Shown: piece by piece, positions 1 to 38,384 of the stretch
How the letters are laid out: each line of letters begins with the position of its first letter
Numbering within the stretch: the first letter of the stretch is position 1
Source of the DNA: a virus
IMG/VR virus record: IMGVR_UViG_3300025284_000004
Location: 1-38,384 of that record
Strand: one strand, 5' to 3'
Length of the DNA stretch: 38,384 nt
Made by a program: the position numbers and the translations under genes
The notes under the pieces: model-generated
Told to the model about the DNA's origin: nothing
The model's input: only the letters and a program-made list of their open reading frames with translations
Database searches by the model: none

Positions 1-155
1 GAATCTGGCTGCCTCGGGCGACTCCTCGAATCTGGCTGCCTCGGGCGACTACTCGAATCTGGCTGCCTCGGGCGACTACTCGAATCTGGCTGCCTCGGGC
101 AACTCCTCGAAGCTGGCTGCCTCGGGCAACTCCTCGAAGCTGGCTGCCTCGGGCA
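1..155 (+). repeat. 27-bp tandem coding repeats, left end
   Basis: There are about six copies of a 27-bp unit coding for NLAASG(D/N)(Y/S)S. Copies differ mainly at the D/N, Y/S and N/K positions. The same array continues at 38239-38384. The contig breaks inside it, as expected when an assembler cannot resolve near-identical copies. The true copy number is unknown. Confidence 0.9.
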
Positions 156-5397: not shown

Positions 5398-5905
5398 GAA
5401 ACTGGATTTGGACGAGCTGGAGAAGGCGTATGAGACGAAAGCCGATCATCCGGATTTTGCGCTGAACATGCTGAAGGCGATGCACTCATTTCCGGCTCTG
5501 ATCGCCCGCATCCGCGAACTCGAAACCGAACTGGAGCGCGCCAGCCAGCCTGGCAGCGAGCCGCCACTTGCATGGTTCGAAGCTGAAGAATCATGCCGCG
5601 GCGCTGATCTACGCAGCATCGTCAACGGAATGATGCATTCCACGCGATGGCATTGGCAGGCAGAACGCCCGCAGACTAACAACCCCGTGTGGCCGATCTA
5701 TGCAGGTAGCCAGCCTGGCAGCGGGGAGGCTACGCAAGACGCGTCGCGCTATCGCTGGCTTCGTGAAACAGCCATCAGGTGTCAAGCATACGTGCACGGC
5801 AAGCCGAACTGGCTTTTCGGCTTCGAGTTGCGAGGAACCACATTTGACGAAGCCATCGACGCAGCCCGCGCTTCGCTGGACGGGCGGAGGGAGGGGCATG
5901 AATGA
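5390..5905 (+). CDS. mosaic early phage protein with RYRWLR module, 171 aa
   Basis: It overlaps the previous gene by 8 bp. Residues 1-50 are helical (ending in a coiled coil, ALIARIRELETELERA). A middle module contains EPPLAWFEAEESCRGADLRS, and the C-terminus carries DASRYRWLRETAI, the same module type as in the preceding 313-residue gene. The phrase SQPGS occurs twice, at 5546 and 5708. Its stop lies inside the starts of the two overlapping ORFs that follow. Confidence 0.6.
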   Translation: MAEKLDLDELEKAYETKADHPDFALNMLKAMHSFPALIARIRELETELERASQPGSEPPLAWFEAEESCRGADLRSIVNGMMHSTRWHWQAERPQTNNPVWPIYAGSQPGSGEATQDASRYRWLRETAIRCQAYVHGKPNWLFGFELRGTTFDEAIDAARASLDGRREGHE

Positions 5906-6710
5906 GCTTCATCTTTTCGCGGGCGCTGGTGGAGGCATCCTTGCAGGTCAACTGCTCGGACGTCGATGCGTATGCGCCGTTGAGTTTGATCCCTACGCCC
6001 AAGCCGTCCTTGTCGCTAGGCAAAACGATGGCACCTTTCCTCCATTCCCGATTTGGAATGACGTTCGAACCTTTGACGGAAGACCTTGGCACGGAATTGC
6101 TGACGTCGTGGCTGGCGGGTTTCCGTGCCAGGACATCAGTGCAGCAGGAACCGGCGATGGCCTTGACGGCGAGCGAAGCGGACTCTGGACAGAAATGGCG
6201 CGCATCATTCGCGAAGTACGACCCCGCCGAGTCGAAGTGGAGAACTCCCCAATGCTCACTTCTCGGGGACTTTCCAGAGTTCTCGGAGACTTGGCCGAGA
6301 TGGGGTTCGATGCGGAATGGGGTGTCATATCTGCGGCCGACGTTGGCGCTCCCCACCTTCGGGAACGAATCTGGATTGTGGCCCACGCCAACGGTTTGCG
6401 GGAATTACAACAGGCCGGGAGCGAGTGCGAACAGCGGAATGGGGTTGGCTTCAGCAGTGAAGCTCTGGCCGACGCCGTGCGCGAGCGCGAGCAAGGGATC
6501 TTCGCCGGCAGCATTGGTTCGGAAGGACGGCAAGAGCCGATCGAACGATCGGATCGACCACGCAGTTATGGCATCAGACGGTGGCCAGTTGAACCCGGAG
6601 TGGGTCGAGTGGTTGATGGGATGGCCAATCGGGCACACCGCATTAAAGCCATTGGAAACGGCCAGGTATCAAGAGTGGCTGCAACAGCATGGCATCTTCT
6701 CGAACGCTGA
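5898..6710 (+). CDS. dcm: DNA (cytosine-5) methyltransferase
   Basis: The enzyme transfers a methyl group from SAM to cytosine C5 in DNA, probably to protect phage DNA from host restriction. In 270 residues the C5-MTase motifs are in order: motif I LHLFAGAGGG (4-13), the CAVEFDP strand (26-32), motif IV GGFPCQDIS with catalytic Cys77, motif VI VEVENSP (Glu115, Asn116), motif VIII APHLRERIW (151-159) and motif X AIGNGQV (251-257). The region between VIII and X, the target recognition region, is short. GGAGGGAGGGGC lies directly before the ATG. A second ORF covers almost its whole length in the +1 frame. Confidence 0.88.
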   Translation: MNELHLFAGAGGGILAGQLLGRRCVCAVEFDPYAQAVLVARQNDGTFPPFPIWNDVRTFDGRPWHGIADVVAGGFPCQDISAAGTGDGLDGERSGLWTEMARIIREVRPRRVEVENSPMLTSRGLSRVLGDLAEMGFDAEWGVISAADVGAPHLRERIWIVAHANGLRELQQAGSECEQRNGVGFSSEALADAVREREQGIFAGSIGSEGRQEPIERSDRPRSYGIRRWPVEPGVGRVVDGMANRAHRIKAIGNGQVSRVAATAWHLLER

Positions 6711-7619: not shown

Positions 7620-8705
7620 ATGGCCGCCAGACCTCGCATCCGCAAGCGCGCACACTACCCGCCAAATCTCCATGAGCCGAGGCCAGGATATTTCACGTGG
7701 CGCGATCCGCGCGACGGCAAGACCCACATCATCGGCCGGGTGACGGCAGCCGAAGCCATCCACGAGGCGCAACAGGCGAATCTCGTGGCAGAGCGCGGGA
7801 TAGCCCGCAAGTCGTTGGCAGAGCGGCTAGAATCGGGCCGCGAGACGGTGTCCGACCTGCTCGACAAGATGCCGACCGAGGGTCTGAAGGCCAACACGCT
7901 GAAGGCGCGGGCAGACTACGATCGAACGATCAAGGCAGAAATTGGCAGCATCCTATGCGAGGACCTGACCACCAAGCACATCGCCGATATGCTCGAAGGT
8001 ATCAAGGCTCGCGGGAAGAACCGTTGGGCTCAGGCCATCCGCAGCCGAATCTTCGCCGCATGCACAAAAGGCGTAGCGCTCGGCTGGATGCAGACCAACC
8101 CTGCCGCCGTGACCGAGAAGGTCAAAGTGAAGGTCAAGCGCCAGCGGCTGTCGATGGAGCAGTTCCAGAAGATCCTGGACAAGGCGCCCGAGGTAGCCGC
8201 CTGGCTGCCGAACGCCATGCTTCTGGCACTAATCACCGGGCAGGACCGTTCGACAATCGCTGGCCTGCAGCGGTCGAATGTGGTCGGTGATTATCTGGTG
8301 CTGCAGCGATCGAAGACCGACGTTGTGATAGAGATCCCTTTGGCCCTGCGGATGGATGCCATTGGCCTGTCGCTGGCCGATGTGATCGCCAAGTGCAAGA
8401 CGACCGGCGTAGTCAGCAAGCACCTGATCCACCATATTCGCCCATACACCGGCGCCCCGAGCGGGGCTCCAGTCGACCTCGACACCATTTCGAAGTCATT
8501 CGCCAAGGCTCGGGTGCTGGCAGGGCTGGTTGGGGATACCGCCCCCACCTTTCACGAGCTACGGAGCCTGGCGAAGCGGACCTACATGGAACAAACCGGG
8601 GTCGATACTAAAGCCCTCTTAGGGCATCAAAGTGATCAAACTGCAGATATCTACGCCAATCCCCGAGGGATTGCACCAATTCGAGTGAAGGTGGCCCATG
8701 GCTAA
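7620..8705 (+). CDS. int: tyrosine integrase (lambda type)
   Basis: This is the site-specific recombinase for phage integration and excision. The 361-residue protein has an N-terminal arm-type DNA-binding region (residues 1-55, basic, GYFTWRDPRDGKTHIIGRV), a core-binding helical domain (about 75-160) and a catalytic domain (175-361). Catalytic residues seen are Arg210 (TGQDRSTIAGL), Lys232, His312 and Arg315 (HELRS), His336 (LLGHQ) and Tyr345 (DIYANP). It starts 3 bp after xis and overlaps the HNH gene by 8 bp. The arm domain implies a lambda-like attP with arm sites. Confidence 0.95.
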   Translation: MAARPRIRKRAHYPPNLHEPRPGYFTWRDPRDGKTHIIGRVTAAEAIHEAQQANLVAERGIARKSLAERLESGRETVSDLLDKMPTEGLKANTLKARADYDRTIKAEIGSILCEDLTTKHIADMLEGIKARGKNRWAQAIRSRIFAACTKGVALGWMQTNPAAVTEKVKVKVKRQRLSMEQFQKILDKAPEVAAWLPNAMLLALITGQDRSTIAGLQRSNVVGDYLVLQRSKTDVVIEIPLALRMDAIGLSLADVIAKCKTTGVVSKHLIHHIRPYTGAPSGAPVDLDTISKSFAKARVLAGLVGDTAPTFHELRSLAKRTYMEQTGVDTKALLGHQSDQTADIYANPRGIAPIRVKVAHG

Positions 8706-9192
8706 AGAACTTGATATTACCCGCCTACGCGGAATGATCGGATACGACGTAGAAACTGGCGAGTTCACATGGCTGGTGAGTCGCGGAACAGTCAAGGCAG
8801 GCCGTAGCGCTGGTCGCATCTGCAGACAGGGGTACCGCGTCATCAAGATTGACTCTCAGTATTGGCAGGCACACCGACTTGCATGGGCAATCGCATACGG
8901 GTCATTCCCTGAAAATGAAATTGACCACATCAATGGCAATCGCTCCGATAACCGCATTGCAAACCTCCGTGACGTGTCCAAGGAAGTGAACCAACAGAAC
9001 AGACACCGAGCGCGTTCGGACAACATTTCGGGGTTCCAGGGAGTCTTCAAGCACAAGGATTGCGACCGTTGGGTAGCTCAAATTATGGCCGGCAAAAAGC
9101 AACGGTACTTGGGGCTTTTCCAGACTCCAGAAGAGGCTCATGCCGCCTACCTACGTGCCAAGTCCGAACTTCACGCCACACGCGAATTTTGA
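8698..9192 (+). CDS. HNH endonuclease with AP2 domain
   Basis: This 164-residue protein is a free-standing HNH-AP2 homing-type endonuclease. The HNH core is at about residues 60-105, with HRLAWAIAYG, EIDHINGNRSDNRIANLR and an Asn-rich end. A C-terminal AP2-like DNA-binding domain follows (GFQGVFKHKDCDRWVAQI, YLGLFQTPEEAHAAYL). Such genes are selfish elements that cut DNA in related phages lacking them. It overlaps the int stop by 8 bp, so it lies between int and the likely attP. Confidence 0.92.
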   Translation: MAKELDITRLRGMIGYDVETGEFTWLVSRGTVKAGRSAGRICRQGYRVIKIDSQYWQAHRLAWAIAYGSFPENEIDHINGNRSDNRIANLRDVSKEVNQQNRHRARSDNISGFQGVFKHKDCDRWVAQIMAGKKQRYLGLFQTPEEAHAAYLRAKSELHATREF

Positions 9193-9397: not shown

Positions 9398-9601
9398 TCA
9401 ATCCACCCCCATTTCCCGCTGCCAGTCGTCGCACCCTTTCAGCGGACACGGATTCCCAAGTTGGCAGTCCAGACGCATCCTGGGGTGGGGATATTCCTGC
9501 GCCATAGTGATCTTGAGGCGCGAACAGGTACGGCATGCCCATTCCTTGGAGATCACATAGGAAGGCATGGGCGGGGCTGGAGGTTGGAAGCCGGTCGACA
9601 T
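9398..9601 (-). CDS. small Cys-rich protein under a LexA-type box, 67 aa
   Basis: This ORF reads against int and the acyltransferase. The protein has two Cys groups (WACRTCSRLK at about 21-30, LDCQLGNPCPLKGCDDW at about 44-60), suggesting a small zinc-binding protein. A perfect CTGT-N8-ACAG palindrome begins 8 bp before its ATG, and the -10-like TATACA in that box would place the RNA start one or two bases before the ATG. The transcript may thus be leaderless; no ribosome site is seen. An SOS-induced antirepressor or host-modifying role (compare Tum of phage 186) is speculation. Confidence 0.5.
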   Translation of the reverse strand: MSTGFQPPAPPMPSYVISKEWACRTCSRLKITMAQEYPHPRMRLDCQLGNPCPLKGCDDWQREMGVD

Positions 9602-9608
9602 CGGAGCA

Positions 9609-9624
9609 CTGTATATCTGAACAG
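9609..9624 (-). promoter_or_regulatory. LexA (SOS) box
   Basis: The 16-bp word CTGTATATCTGAACAG fits the gamma/betaproteobacterial LexA consensus CTGT-N8-ACAG. It ends 8 bp from the start of the minus-strand Cys-rich gene and overlaps its likely -10 (TATACA at 9615-9610). LexA binding here would block that promoter until DNA damage. Confidence 0.6.
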
Positions 9625-9690
9625 TTGTCCATTCAACTTAACGGCGCCCTGTGGCATCATCGCGGACGTTTCAAAATTGACACGATTCGG

Positions 9691-11682
9691 ATGAAATACG
9701 CCAATCCCACCACAATTGCTCATCCCCCATACCGCGACGATATTGATGGCCTGCGCGCCGTGGCAGTGCTGGTCGTGGTGGCATTCCATGCTTTCCCGGA
9801 CTGGTTGCCGGGCGGGTTCGTCGGCGTCGACATCTTCTTCGTCATCTCGGGCTTCCTGATCTCCACCATCCTGTTCAAGGGCCTGGAGCAGGGTTCGTTC
9901 TCGTTTGGCGACTTCTACGCGCGCCGCGTGCGCCGGATCTTCCCGGCTCTGGTCATCGTGCTGGGCGCCTGCCTAGCGTTTGGCTGGGGCATCCTGCTGA
10001 CAGACGAATACACGTCGCTGGGTGACAGCGTGCTGGGCGGAGCATCGTTCCTTGCCAACTTCCAGCTGTGGCAGCAGGCCGGTTACTTCGACACCAAAGC
10101 CGAACTAAAGCCATTGCTGCATCTCTGGTCGCTGGGGATCGAGGAACAGTTCTACATGGTATGGCCGCTCCTACTCTGGCTGGGGTATCGACTGCGCGCC
10201 AATCTTCTTATGGTGACGCTTTTGGTGTTGGGCGCCTCGTTTTTCCTGAACATCGACACCGTCCATCTTGACCGGACGCGGACCTTCTATCTGCCGGATA
10301 CACGTTTCTGGGAACTGCTGTCTGGCAGCCTGCTGGCGTACGTGACGCTGCACCATTGGCGCCTGAAGATGTCGCGCGCGCTGTCCGAGCTGCTGTCGGT
10401 CGCCGGTATCGGCCTGTTGTTCGCTGCCGTGGCGCTTGTGCGCGCCGAAGACTATTTCCCCGGCTGGTGGGCGCTGCTGCCTATCGGCGGCGCGGCGCTG
10501 TCGATTGCGGCCGGTCCCGACGCATGGCTAAATCGCTACGTCCTGGGCAGCTTGCCAATGCGCAGAATCGGTCTGATCAGCTTCCAGCTGTATCTGTGGC
10601 ACTGGCCTTTGCTGGTTTTCGCCCGTCTGGTCTATGGCGACACGCCCTCAGATGCTGTCCGCGCCGGTGCCGTGGCGCTGGCCTTTGTTCTCGCCTGGCT
10701 GACGGCACGAATAGAGAAGCCACTTCGCTTCGGCGCTTTCCCGCGCATGAAGGTCGCTCTGCTTTGCACCGCCATGGTCGCGGTGGCGGGCACTGGCTAT
10801 CTAATCTCCGAACAGCGCATCGTGCCCTACTCCAAATCGGCCGGACTGGAGAAGATCATGGCGGCTGCCGGCGAGTGGGATTTCCCCAGCAAGGAAATGA
10901 AACAGGTGGAGTTCCAGAAGAAGGTGCTGTTCGTGAGCGATAGCGGCAGTCCGGAGACCACGCTATTCCTTGGCGACAGCAACATGGAACAGTACGGGCC
11001 GCGGATCAACCAGCTTGTCAGCCAGCAATCCGGGAAGGTGAATACGGCGGTGTTTGCCACGGCGCCAGGTTGTCCACCGATTCCGAATGTAACGGATAAG
11101 GACCACCCGCAATGCGGACATTCTCTGAATACTTCGCTGGAGTACGCTGCAAGACCAGAGGTCACCACGGTGGTGATCGGCGCGCTGTGGGACGTCTACT
11201 ACGTGATGGGCAACTTCTACCAGTATGAGACTGGTGGAAAGCCCGAACGACTGGCGCCGAATTCTCTCGGAACGGCACAATCGATGGACTCGCTGGCGGC
11301 GATGATCGAAGGGCTGGTGAAGTCAGGAAAGAAGGTATATCTAGTCCTGACGATCCCGAATGGGCAGAAGGTCGACCCGAAGTTCATGGTGAAGCGTTCG
11401 CTCTACCCTATCGGCTTCAATGTTGATCGCGACGGCCTGCCAGTCGGCTACTACCTGCACTCCTGGTACAACCAGGTGGGAAATCTGCGGGCCCAACTGA
11501 TCGACGCCGGGCGCCGCGGTGGCGCCACGATCATCGACCCGTTGGAACACCTGTGCGACAAGAAGATATGTCCGTCAGTCACAGCAAACGGCGAACCGAT
11601 CTATAAGGACTCTGGCCATCTGCGTCCAAGCTTCGTACGCGACCACGTGCTTTACTTGGACGAGACGCTCGACGCCGGCTGA
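9691..11682 (+). CDS. O-acyltransferase (acyltransferase 3 family) with SGNH domain
   Basis: This 663-residue membrane enzyme is of the OafA/YrhL type and probably acetylates a cell-surface polysaccharide, such as O-antigen. About ten membrane segments fill residues 1-370, with the family motif Arg22-x10-His33 followed by GGFVGVDIFFVISGFLIS. The periplasmic C-terminal half is an SGNH hydrolase-like domain with FLGDSNMEQ (about 428) and DSGHLRPS (His about 643). Phages encode such enzymes for lysogenic conversion and to block superinfection. ATG 9691 is chosen because homology begins at DDIDGLRAVAV; the ORF is open upstream. It is convergent with the lysis genes and overlaps Rz1 by 31 bp. Confidence 0.88.
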   Translation: MKYANPTTIAHPPYRDDIDGLRAVAVLVVVAFHAFPDWLPGGFVGVDIFFVISGFLISTILFKGLEQGSFSFGDFYARRVRRIFPALVIVLGACLAFGWGILLTDEYTSLGDSVLGGASFLANFQLWQQAGYFDTKAELKPLLHLWSLGIEEQFYMVWPLLLWLGYRLRANLLMVTLLVLGASFFLNIDTVHLDRTRTFYLPDTRFWELLSGSLLAYVTLHHWRLKMSRALSELLSVAGIGLLFAAVALVRAEDYFPGWWALLPIGGAALSIAAGPDAWLNRYVLGSLPMRRIGLISFQLYLWHWPLLVFARLVYGDTPSDAVRAGAVALAFVLAWLTARIEKPLRFGAFPRMKVALLCTAMVAVAGTGYLISEQRIVPYSKSAGLEKIMAAAGEWDFPSKEMKQVEFQKKVLFVSDSGSPETTLFLGDSNMEQYGPRINQLVSQQSGKVNTAVFATAPGCPPIPNVTDKDHPQCGHSLNTSLEYAARPEVTTVVIGALWDVYYVMGNFYQYETGGKPERLAPNSLGTAQSMDSLAAMIEGLVKSGKKVYLVLTIPNGQKVDPKFMVKRSLYPIGFNVDRDGLPVGYYLHSWYNQVGNLRAQLIDAGRRGGATIIDPLEHLCDKKICPSVTANGEPIYKDSGHLRPSFVRDHVLYLDETLDAG

Positions 11683-34601: not shown

Positions 34602-35342
34602 CTACTTGGCTCCGGCAAATCTGTTTTGCATCTGTTGCGGCGCAGCGGCTTGGTTATTCATCCAAATCGCTTTAAAGCCAGCCCAGTTCGATCCCACTGC
34701 GTATGCAACCGTCTGAGCCGGATTCATCCCGACCTTGCCGCCCTCGGTCTTCACGTGGTCCCAAGCACTCGGCGTCAGCGGAAGCTTCTTTGCCTTCCTG
34801 AGCGTCAACCAATCCTTGGCCTGTTGCTTGTCCACACCCTCCGCAACCAACTCCGAAACACCAAGCACATCGGAGCGGTCACGCGACGGAGTATTTACGG
34901 TTCCTTCCTTTTCTGACGGTTCCGTGTCCCGTTTTTGGGACTGTTTCAAGGGAAAAACGGTACTGTTTGACGGGAAAATTGGGACTATTCCGTTTTTGGG
35001 ACTGTTCCGTTTTTGGGACTGTTTAACTGTCCCGTTTTCGGTACTGTTTGATACCGTCGAAACAGTCCCAATTTCGGGATCGTTTAACCGATAGACGGGG
35101 ATCTGTTTCGTATCGCCTTTGCGTTCCCCTGTGTCGGCAATGAAGCCCATTTCACGAAGCACTGTGAGGTTCTTCAACACCGTCTTGCGATCTTGCCCGG
35201 TTGCCTCCGCGAGATACGCCGTGGAAGGCCACGCGATGAATTCCTTCCCGTCGGCGCAGTTGGCCATGACCACCAAAACAAACTTGGCGGACGATTGTTT
35301 GATGGGCTGTTTCAACGCCCAGGCAATGGCCTCAACGCTCAC
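34602..35342 (-). CDS. replication initiator (lambda O-like, winged helix)
   Basis: The 246-residue protein has an N-terminal winged helix (helix-turn-helix 36 type, about 15-85: KFVLVVMANCADGKEFIAWP, TAYLAEATGQDRKTVLKNLT, LREMGFIADTGERKG). A low-complexity linker (about 88-145) follows, coded by the iterons, and then a C-terminal domain (AWDHVKTEGGKVGMNPAQTV, about 190-225). This is the build of O-type initiators, which bind iterons in their own gene and recruit the helicase. Confidence 0.8.
   Translation of the reverse strand: MSVEAIAWALKQPIKQSSAKFVLVVMANCADGKEFIAWPSTAYLAEATGQDRKTVLKNLTVLREMGFIADTGERKGDTKQIPVYRLNDPEIGTVSTVSNSTENGTVKQSQKRNSPKNGIVPIFPSNSTVFPLKQSQKRDTEPSEKEGTVNTPSRDRSDVLGVSELVAEGVDKQQAKDWLTLRKAKKLPLTPSAWDHVKTEGGKVGMNPAQTVAYAVGSNWAGFKAIWMNNQAAAPQQMQNRFAGAK
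34928..35080. repeat. iterons, candidate replication origin inside the initiator gene
   Basis: Copies of CCCGTTTTTGGGACTGTTT lie at 34928-34946, 34990-35006, 35007-35024 and 35031-35049 (the last one variant), weaker ones near 34950-34967 and 34971-34988, and an inverted copy at 35058-35080. Neighbouring copies are 17 bp apart, so the coding frame changes between them: one is read KQSQKR, the next NSPKNG. The repeats are conserved as DNA, as expected for initiator binding sites. Confidence 0.75.
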
Positions 35343-36014: not shown

Positions 36015-36668
36015 ATGGAACTTAAGGACTGGGTGCGCGAAGCGCGCGAGAAAGGAAATCTCACGCAGACGCAGATGGGCGAAGCCCTTGGCGTCTCAAA
36101 GGCCAACGTGTCTGCTTGGGAGAATGGGCGGCACGAACCGAGCTGGTCGCAGATGCTGAGAATCCGGAGCATCACCGGCATGCCGTTGCCTGTAGACGAT
36201 AGGACCGACAGCGAACTACTGGAAGAGACTGAGGGCGTGCCTCCTGACTTCGCCATGCTGCGGCGCTTGGATGTAAAGGCGTCAGCTGGGGCCGGTAACT
36301 TGGTATTCTACGAAACCGAAAAGGGACGATTGGCCTTCCGACGCGACTTCCTGCGCCAGAGTGGGGTAAGCGAAGCCGATGCCGTAGTGATCTACGCAGA
36401 TGGCCAGAGCATGGAGCCGCGTATCCCGGATGGCGCGGTTCTATTGGTGGACACCAGCCGTCGCGAGCTTGCGAATAATGAGGTCCATGTGGTACGTCTG
36501 GAGCACGACATCCTCGTGAAACGCCTTAGAAGAGAGATAGGCGGCGGCGTTTGGATCGTCTCAGACAATCCGGACAAGGCCAAATACCCGGACATCCTTG
36601 TTACGCCCGACAAGGAAGATCTGGTTGCCATAATTGGGCGCGTCTTTTGGATGGGAGCACGTCTGTGA
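36015..36668 (+). CDS. cI: CI-type repressor (HTH + S24 peptidase)
   Basis: This 217-residue lysogeny repressor has an N-terminal HTH (about 16-38, LTQTQMGEALGVSKANVSAW) and a C-terminal LexA/S24 domain with nucleophile Ser132 (DGQSMEP), Lys169 (ILVKRL) and a likely cleavage site Ala91-Gly92 (ASAGAG). RecA-stimulated self-cleavage on DNA damage would induce the prophage. No ribosome site precedes the ATG, so a leaderless or poorly initiated message, as for lambda cI from pRM, is possible. Confidence 0.9.
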   Translation: MELKDWVREAREKGNLTQTQMGEALGVSKANVSAWENGRHEPSWSQMLRIRSITGMPLPVDDRTDSELLEETEGVPPDFAMLRRLDVKASAGAGNLVFYETEKGRLAFRRDFLRQSGVSEADAVVIYADGQSMEPRIPDGAVLLVDTSRRELANNEVHVVRLEHDILVKRLRREIGGGVWIVSDNPDKAKYPDILVTPDKEDLVAIIGRVFWMGARL

Positions 36669-37883: not shown

Positions 37884-38384
37884 ATGCAAGAGCAAGAAAA
37901 GCAAGAAGTCGTAGTCGCATACAAGGCCTTCAACAAGGACCTGACCTGCCGCGATTTCCAGTTCGAAATCGGCAAGACCTACGAGCATGACGGCAAGGTC
38001 GTGGCCTGCGAATCTGGTTTCCATGCCTGCGAAAATCCGATGGATACCTGGGGCTACTACGATCTCACGCAATCGCGCTTCTGCACTGTCGAGCTTTCCG
38101 GCGAACTGTGCCGCCATGGTGAAGACTCGAAGGTCGCTGCTGGCCGCATCACGCTGAAGGCTGAAATCGGTCTGCCGCAGATCATTACCGAAGCCGTGAA
38201 GTGGATGCTGGCGTTCGTGAAGGACATGCCGGCTGCTGAAACTGCCTCGGGCGACTACTCGAATCTGGCTGCCTCGGGCGACTACTCGAATCTGGCTGCC
38301 TCGGGCGACTACTCGAATCTGGCTGCCTCGGGCAACTCCTCGAAGCTGGCTGCCTCGGGCGACTACTCGAAGCTGGCTGCCTCG
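37884..38384 (+). CDS. DUF7666-type repeat protein, N-terminal part (partial)
   Basis: GAGGGGA precedes the ATG. Residues ~10-110 form the DUF7666 head: VVVAYKAFNKDLTCRDFQFE, IGKTYEHDG, CESGFHACENPMDTWGYYDL, FCTVELSGEL and a helix KWMLAFVKDM. The 9-residue repeats start at about residue 119 and run off the window. Proteins of this build are common in phages and prophages; no activity is known. The rest of the gene lies at 2-358. Confidence 0.82.
   Translation, partial: MQEQEKQEVVVAYKAFNKDLTCRDFQFEIGKTYEHDGKVVACESGFHACENPMDTWGYYDLTQSRFCTVELSGELCRHGEDSKVAAGRITLKAEIGLPQIITEAVKWMLAFVKDMPAAETASGDYSNLAASGDYSNLAASGDYSNLAASGNSSKLAASGDYSKLAAS
38239..38384 (+). repeat. 27-bp tandem coding repeats, right end
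   Basis: About five copies of the unit coding for LAASGDYSN or variants, in the order DYSN, DYSN, DYSN, NSSK, DYSK. The copies at the left end run DSSN, DYSN, DYSN, NSSK, NSSK, so the two arrays are similar but not the same. Confidence 0.9.

What the first reader, a model, noticed from the sequence alone, without database searches (positions are those of the whole stretch)
9398..9624. SOS-box gene with a nearly leaderless start, placed against int
A perfect CTGT-N8-ACAG LexA palindrome (9609-9624) overlaps a -10-like TATACA and lies 8 bp before the ATG of a 67-residue Cys-rich ORF. The predicted RNA start falls at or just before the ATG, so the message may have no leader. The phage would then have two SOS responses: CI self-cleavage and LexA-controlled expression of this small protein. 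Tum of phage 186 sets a precedent for a LexA-controlled antirepressor, but this protein looks unrelated.
Basis: partly seen in the sequence, partly recalled or inferred. Interest (0 to 1): 0.72.

Follow-up and report, generated by a model that had tools for sequence, protein, structure and literature searches.

The report
SOS-controlled four-cysteine microprotein in prophages
A tiny, previously unannotated phage gene sits directly behind a DNA-damage (LexA) switch, and the same switch-plus-gene pair recurs in many phages, plasmids and genomes of Burkholderia-type bacteria, often next to DNA-repair genes, so it is probably a small damage-response protein that these mobile elements carry rather than a trigger of phage induction.

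Summary
A perfect CTGT-N8-ACAG box (9609-9624) lies 7 nt (not 8) before the ATG of a 67-aa ORF (9601-9398, minus). The box alone is not significant: 0.48 are expected per window. Conservation is. Box-blind protein searches found 14 further relatives, 32-85% identical at protein level, and 14/14 carry the box (at most 1 mismatch) directly before the start codon. Seven host genomes have two such boxes before lexA. The window's best promoter (TTGAAT-N17-TACAGT) puts +1 on the A of ATG, so a leaderless start is plausible for this subfamily. The proteins share C-x2-C...C...C and R-E-x-G-x-D and match no Pfam, NCBIfam or significant PHROG family. The genes sit at prophage ends, several beside tRNA attachment sites, on Cupriavidus plasmids and on chromosomes. 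Recurrent neighbours are SRAP (HMCES/YedK type, divergent, sharing the box) and an ATP-dependent DNA ligase; in this window the neighbour is an O-antigen acetylase. The phage's CI is a self-cleaving S24 type, so an antirepressor is not needed. Best reading: a LexA-repressed cargo gene for a zinc-type microprotein of the DNA-damage response. LexA control is well supported; the protein's biochemical role is inferred.

The parts
9398..9601 (-). 67-aa four-cysteine microprotein ORF (stop codon 9398-9400)
   Evidence: conserved in 14+ relatives found without using the box; dN/dS 0.09-0.16
9609..9624 (.). LexA operator (SOS box) CTGT-N8-ACAG
   Evidence: conserved before the start codon in relatives; same operator before lexA in 7 host genomes
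9608..9613 (-). predicted -10 TACAGT: last 5 bases of the box plus a T conserved outside the palindrome in the close relatives
   Evidence: score 8.7, best in the region; predicted +1 = A of ATG
9631..9636 (-). predicted -35 TTGAAT, 17 bp from the -10
9694..11682 (+). divergent neighbour: O-antigen acetylase (Acyl_transf_3 + SGNH), serotype-conversion type cargo
   Evidence: 94% identical neighbour in L001
7620..8705 (+). tyrosine integrase, convergent with the small gene
8698..9192 (+). HNH/AP2 homing-endonuclease-like ORF overlapping the int stop codon
9193..9397 (.). presumed attP region (inferred, not demonstrated)
   Evidence: inference: in L001-L003 a tRNA-His 3' end follows the small gene within about 100-190 bp
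36015..36668 (+). CI-type repressor, HTH_3 + Peptidase_S24

Best explanation
The gene is a LexA-repressed, monocistronic cargo gene at the attachment-site end of a temperate Burkholderiales phage. In a lysogen LexA sits on the box, which overlaps the -10, and blocks RNA polymerase. DNA damage removes LexA, and a message that starts at or within a few bases of the ATG is made and translated without a Shine-Dalgarno leader. Its product is a small, mostly mildly acidic protein in which four invariant cysteines probably hold a structural zinc. It most likely works as an accessory factor of the DNA-damage response, in the same pathway as the SRAP (abasic-site crosslinking) protein and ATP-dependent ligase that neighbour its relatives, and helps the damaged lysogen, plasmid host or induced phage. 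Shown: ORF, box, conservation, host operator, four-Cys signature, context. Inferred: LexA binding, the exact +1, zinc binding, and the role in repair.
For: Box-blind retrieval: 14/14 relatives of the window subtype have the box with at most 1 mismatch at the start codon (with 13, 25, 28, 30). A distant look-alike family found by protein profile has a perfect box upstream in 15 of about 16 credible hits and in cultured phages AP3 and IPK. Non-member ORFs of like size: 6/4667 with a perfect box in that position, at least 5 of them at member, look-alike or lexA loci. Host lexA genes carry two such boxes in 7/7 genomes. SRAP lies divergently beside the box in 6 of 20 member records (52-57 bp from box to SRAP ATG), in L078, in phage AP3, and in L166/L167, which are terminase relatives of this phage. 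An ATP-dependent ligase is beside the gene in L036, L038 and L076 and near it on pMOL30-type plasmids and in L081; ligase is in 0 of 26 control records. Invariant C, C, C, C, R, E, G across 27 members.
Against: No biochemical clue: no Pfam or NCBIfam match, no significant PHROG match, no PDB sequence match, weak AlphaFold models (pLDDT 61 and 64) and no fold match. In the window itself the neighbour is an O-antigen acetylase, with no SRAP or ligase. SRAP also occurs in 3 of 26 control records, all terminase relatives of this phage. Repair context could reflect a shared SOS-cargo slot rather than shared function. One member (L076) has no box, although it lies directly upstream of a ligase gene.
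Confidence: 0.5

Rival explanations
1. SOS-triggered host-takeover or growth-inhibiting protein (for example a division or replication inhibitor), made at induction to prepare the host for lysis.
For: Small, LexA-controlled, mobile-element-borne; several members lie beside lysis genes (endolysin in L025, L082-L084).
Against: Stably kept on chromosomes and plasmids without a phage; repair-gene neighbours; purifying selection on the whole ORF.
Confidence: 0.2
2. Modulator of the SOS switch itself: a feedback protein that binds RecA or LexA and limits or tunes SOS, as phage GIL01 gp7 does with LexA.
For: Direct LexA control in mobile elements; precedent gp7 (PMC4551915). Two prophages with the gene lie within about 2 kb of host lexA.
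Against: No sequence link to gp7, DinI or PsiB was found or tested; closeness to lexA is explained by the tRNA-His att site, shown in L004 and not identified in G108.
Confidence: 0.15
3. LexA-controlled antirepressor, like Tum of 186 or GfoA/GfhA/GftA of the Gifsy phages.
For: Small LexA-controlled phage proteins of that kind exist, and some act on other prophages' repressors (PMC3121763).
Against: This phage has a self-cleaving S24 CI, whereas the Gifsy repressors are non-cleavable; members occur on plasmids, and the gene is absent from most relatives of this phage.
Confidence: 0.08
4. SOS-controlled excision factor (recombination directionality factor), since the gene lies next to att.
For: Position beside the attachment site in L001-L003 and L022.
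Against: It is at the end opposite to int in the integrated state; it occurs on plasmids; no HTH; integrases in the member loci are unrelated to each other while the protein is conserved.
Confidence: 0.05
5. Chance palindrome; the gene is not under LexA.
For: About 0.5 such palindromes are expected in a window of this size.
Against: Conserved position and sequence across a family with saturated synonymous sites.
Confidence: 0.02

Closest known systems
SRAP (DUF159/HMCES/YedK) neighbourhoods of Aravind et al. 2013 (PMC3765255)
   Same: SOS-linked loci with SRAP and ATP-dependent ligase that also encode small uncharacterised Zn-chelating proteins; SRAP noted in a Burkholderia thailandensis prophage.
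   Different: Their Zn proteins occur in SRAP/Ku neighbourhoods; Ku was not searched for here, and I could not read their alignments to test identity. The single shared LexA box with a near-leaderless start is not described in the passages read.
LexA-controlled antirepressors of Gifsy phages (GfoA, GfhA, GftA) and Tum of 186
   Same: Small phage proteins outside the immunity region under direct LexA control.
   Different: Those act on non-cleavable repressors; here CI is of the self-cleaving type, and relatives live on plasmids.
Burkholderia phage AP3 genes AP3_0003 / AP3_0004 (DUF159)
   Same: Perfect SOS box between a small Cys-x2-Cys protein and a divergent SRAP gene.
   Different: The AP3 protein belongs to the distant look-alike group (hhalign E 0.0008, probability 25%); the AP3 paper (PMC5247547) does not mention LexA, SOS or DUF159.
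Phage GIL01 gp7
   Same: Small phage protein tied to LexA and SOS.
   Different: gp7 binds LexA; no sequence relation tested or seen.

Membership tests
LexA (SOS) regulon of Burkholderiaceae | CTGT-N8-ACAG operator overlapping the promoter | tested here: met
   the same operator, twice, before lexA in 7/7 genomes
LexA (SOS) regulon of Burkholderiaceae | Operator conserved with the gene | tested here: met
   14/14 box-blind relatives; exception L076, found later by pattern scan
LexA (SOS) regulon of Burkholderiaceae | LexA binding and recA-dependent induction | not testable with these tools
   needs gel shift and expression data
LexA-controlled antirepressor | Partner repressor is non-cleavable | tested here: not met
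   CI carries Peptidase_S24
LexA-controlled antirepressor | Binds and inactivates a phage repressor | not testable with these tools
   needs an induction or binding assay
Zn-ribbon-like small proteins of SRAP neighbourhoods (PMC3765255) | Four conserved metal-ligand residues in a small protein | tested here: met
   C23, C26, C46, C57 invariant in 27 members
Zn-ribbon-like small proteins of SRAP neighbourhoods (PMC3765255) | Encoded with SRAP | tested here: inconclusive
   SRAP adjacent in 6 of 20 member records plus L078, but not in the window
Zn-ribbon-like small proteins of SRAP neighbourhoods (PMC3765255) | Sequence homology to the published domains | not testable with these tools
Zn-ribbon fold | Predicted structure matches solved zinc ribbons | tested here: inconclusive
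   short strands around CxxC in the window model, pLDDT 61 and 64, no fold match for the second model
Leaderless transcript | +1 at the start codon and no Shine-Dalgarno sequence | tested here: inconclusive
   predicted +1 = A of ATG in window, L001, L022, L071 and -1 in L068; other members favour a TATACT -10 with a 15-24 nt leader

The most novel reading that the evidence does not exclude
An undescribed superfamily of LexA-controlled, four-cysteine microproteins, with leaderless or very short-leader messages, forms a divergent SOS unit with SRAP (or with a small ATP-dependent ligase) through one shared operator, and works with SRAP on abasic sites or broken DNA. It is a portable SOS-repair module of Burkholderiales phages and plasmids.
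Probability: 0.35. Interest if true: 0.78.

Novelty: new variant of a known kind. Interest (0 to 1): 0.6.

Why it matters
LexA-controlled phage genes are known, but mostly as induction switches or as repair enzymes. Here a small protein family with no significant match in the libraries searched is tied to LexA in nearly every member and recurrently shares its operator with SRAP, whose partners in bacteria are poorly known. That makes a concrete, testable candidate for an SRAP or ligase partner and suggests that the attachment-site end of these prophages is a slot for SOS cargo. It also offers natural near-leaderless SOS promoters in which LexA covers the -10.

Tried and rejected
Box significance from the window alone: rejected, since chance gives 0.48 per window. 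Pfam, NCBIfam and PADLOC: no useful match; PHROGs only scattered weak ones (best E 0.003). PDB sequence profile: only chance E 2-3 matches. AlphaFold twice (pLDDT 61 and 64); Foldseek against the PDB with the second model: nothing usable. Phage-collection tblastn with window-type proteins: none; with the look-alike type: AP3 and IPK. Order-level genome search: only G001, and only 15 candidates per genome were scored, so it is not informative on absence. Acetylase under the same box: the best plus-strand promoter is weak and does not overlap the box, and the distance differs in L001, so not claimed. Chance pattern hits L060, L063, L064, L075 and one frame of L067 were discarded after reading them; L016, L189, L190, L192 and L194 were discarded as spurious or degenerate. 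The gene as a core gene of this phage group: rejected (0 of 37; the model finds 7 of 7 positive records).

Full report
Observation. A palindrome of this kind is expected 0.48 times in the window, so it carries no weight alone. The ORF is under purifying selection: dN/dS is 0.14, 0.09 and 0.16 against L001, L002 and L003, with dS of 0.8-2.

Conservation. Searches that used only the protein found relatives in phages (L001-L003, L022), in Cupriavidus sp. 2SB (L004), on Cupriavidus plasmids including pMOL30 and in other Burkholderiaceae genomes. All 14 distinct ones have the box, 11 perfect and 3 with one mismatch, directly before the start codon. A pattern search (box, CxxC, R-E-x-G-x-D) widened the set. 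Box-blind pattern scans gave 7 true hits already known with a box, one chance hit (L075) and one member without a box, L076. That member instead stands directly upstream of an ATP-dependent ligase gene, with 3 bp between them. Alignment A3 of 27 members has C23, C26, C46, C57, R62, E63 and G65 invariant. Most members are mildly acidic, pI 5-6.

Operator. In seven host genomes with members, lexA itself is preceded by two perfect CTGT-N8-ACAG boxes, so the motif is the right one for these hosts. LexA binding was not measured.

Promoter. With a sigma-70 score, the window's best promoter is TTGAAT-N17-TACAGT with +1 on the A of ATG; L001, L022 and L071 give the same and L068 gives -1. Many other members favour TATACT at the upstream edge of the box, which implies a 15-24 nt leader; in those with the box 1 nt from the ATG, TATATT inside the box would give a 2-nt leader. 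I saw no Shine-Dalgarno sequence in the boxed members listed; L076, without a box, has AAGG. 'Nearly leaderless' is therefore a good prediction for this gene, not a rule for the family.

Place. In L001-L003 the 3' half of a tRNA-His gene follows the small gene, and in L022 the 3' end of another tRNA: the gene is the last one of the prophage, next to att. Whole tRNA-His and tRNA-Ser genes lie beside the members in G342 and in the genome with pMOL30. Many proviral records end within about 1 kb of it.

Neighbours. The divergent gene is an O-antigen acetylase in the window, L001, L050 and L054 (one also lies near the gene in L038), a membrane protein in L003, L022 and L077, SRAP in L027, L028, L033, L042, L049, L051 and L078, and an ATP-dependent ligase in L036 and L038. 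On pMOL30-type plasmids and in L081 both ligase and SRAP are near. The one box lies 52-57 bp from the SRAP ATG. In L166 and L167, phages whose terminases resemble the window's, a box 51 bp before SRAP also fronts, on its other side, a small protein of the plan C-x2-C...C...C-x2-W-x-R-x-x-G-x-D. Profile comparison with A3 is weak but aligns all four cysteines and the tail (E 0.0013 and 0.0008, probability 19-25%), so I call these look-alikes, perhaps distant relatives. They occur in 20 of 398 Burkholderiaceae genomes; I judge about 16 hits credible, and 15 of these have a perfect box upstream. They also occur in cultured phages AP3 (beside DUF159/SRAP) and IPK.

Mechanism. The phage's CI has an S24 peptidase domain, so damage already inactivates it; a LexA-controlled antirepressor would be redundant. 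The recurrent partners point to DNA damage processing. Aravind et al. 2013 (PMC3765255) reported SRAP/Ku neighbourhoods with small Zn-chelating proteins and SRAP in a Burkholderia prophage; whether this family is one of theirs could not be tested. I therefore favour an SOS-induced accessory protein of repair (0.5), ahead of a host-takeover protein (0.2) and a RecA/LexA modulator (0.15). Structure prediction did not help.

Limits. Family counts come partly from a pattern that contains the box; the statements on box conservation rest on the box-blind searches only. SRAP enrichment is modest at record level (6/20 against 3/26) and rests on adjacency; the six SRAP loci are closely related to each other. 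Absence in other orders was not tested with enough depth.

Noticed in passing
window 1-154 and 38242-38384: Both ends of the record lie in the same kind of 27-bp tandem array (about 5.5 copies each, 95-96% matches), so the record may be a circular genome broken in a repeat.
   Followed up: no
window 34979-35049: Short tandem repeats (17 bp TTGGGACTGTTCCGTTT and 25 bp) inside ORF 34602-35342, possibly iterons of a replication origin.
   Followed up: no
window 8698-9192: HNH/AP2 homing-endonuclease-like ORF overlaps the last 8 bp of int and lies between int and the presumed attP.
   Followed up: no
L004 5001-7411; G108 contig C38: Two prophages with the gene lie within about 2 kb of host lexA; in L004 the tRNA-His att site is next to lexA.
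   Followed up: partly
L001 and L002, just after the small gene: Conserved inverted repeat CGTTGGAAGATCCCGAAAA ... TTCCAACGAACTGAGCCAAG between the stop codon and the tRNA 3' end; a similar but different one in L003.
   Followed up: no
L166 2655-3614, L167 2777-3788: Terminase relatives of this phage carry SRAP with a perfect SOS box at the prophage end, divergent from another small Cys protein.
   Followed up: yes
L006, L007 (Cupriavidus plasmids): The plasmid copies of the small gene bear no listed annotation in PLSDB; a single-domain ATP-dependent ligase nearby is called hypothetical.
   Followed up: partly
window 5890-6143: 76% DNA identity to a cytosine/adenine methyltransferase stretch of two Salmonella phages.
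   Followed up: no
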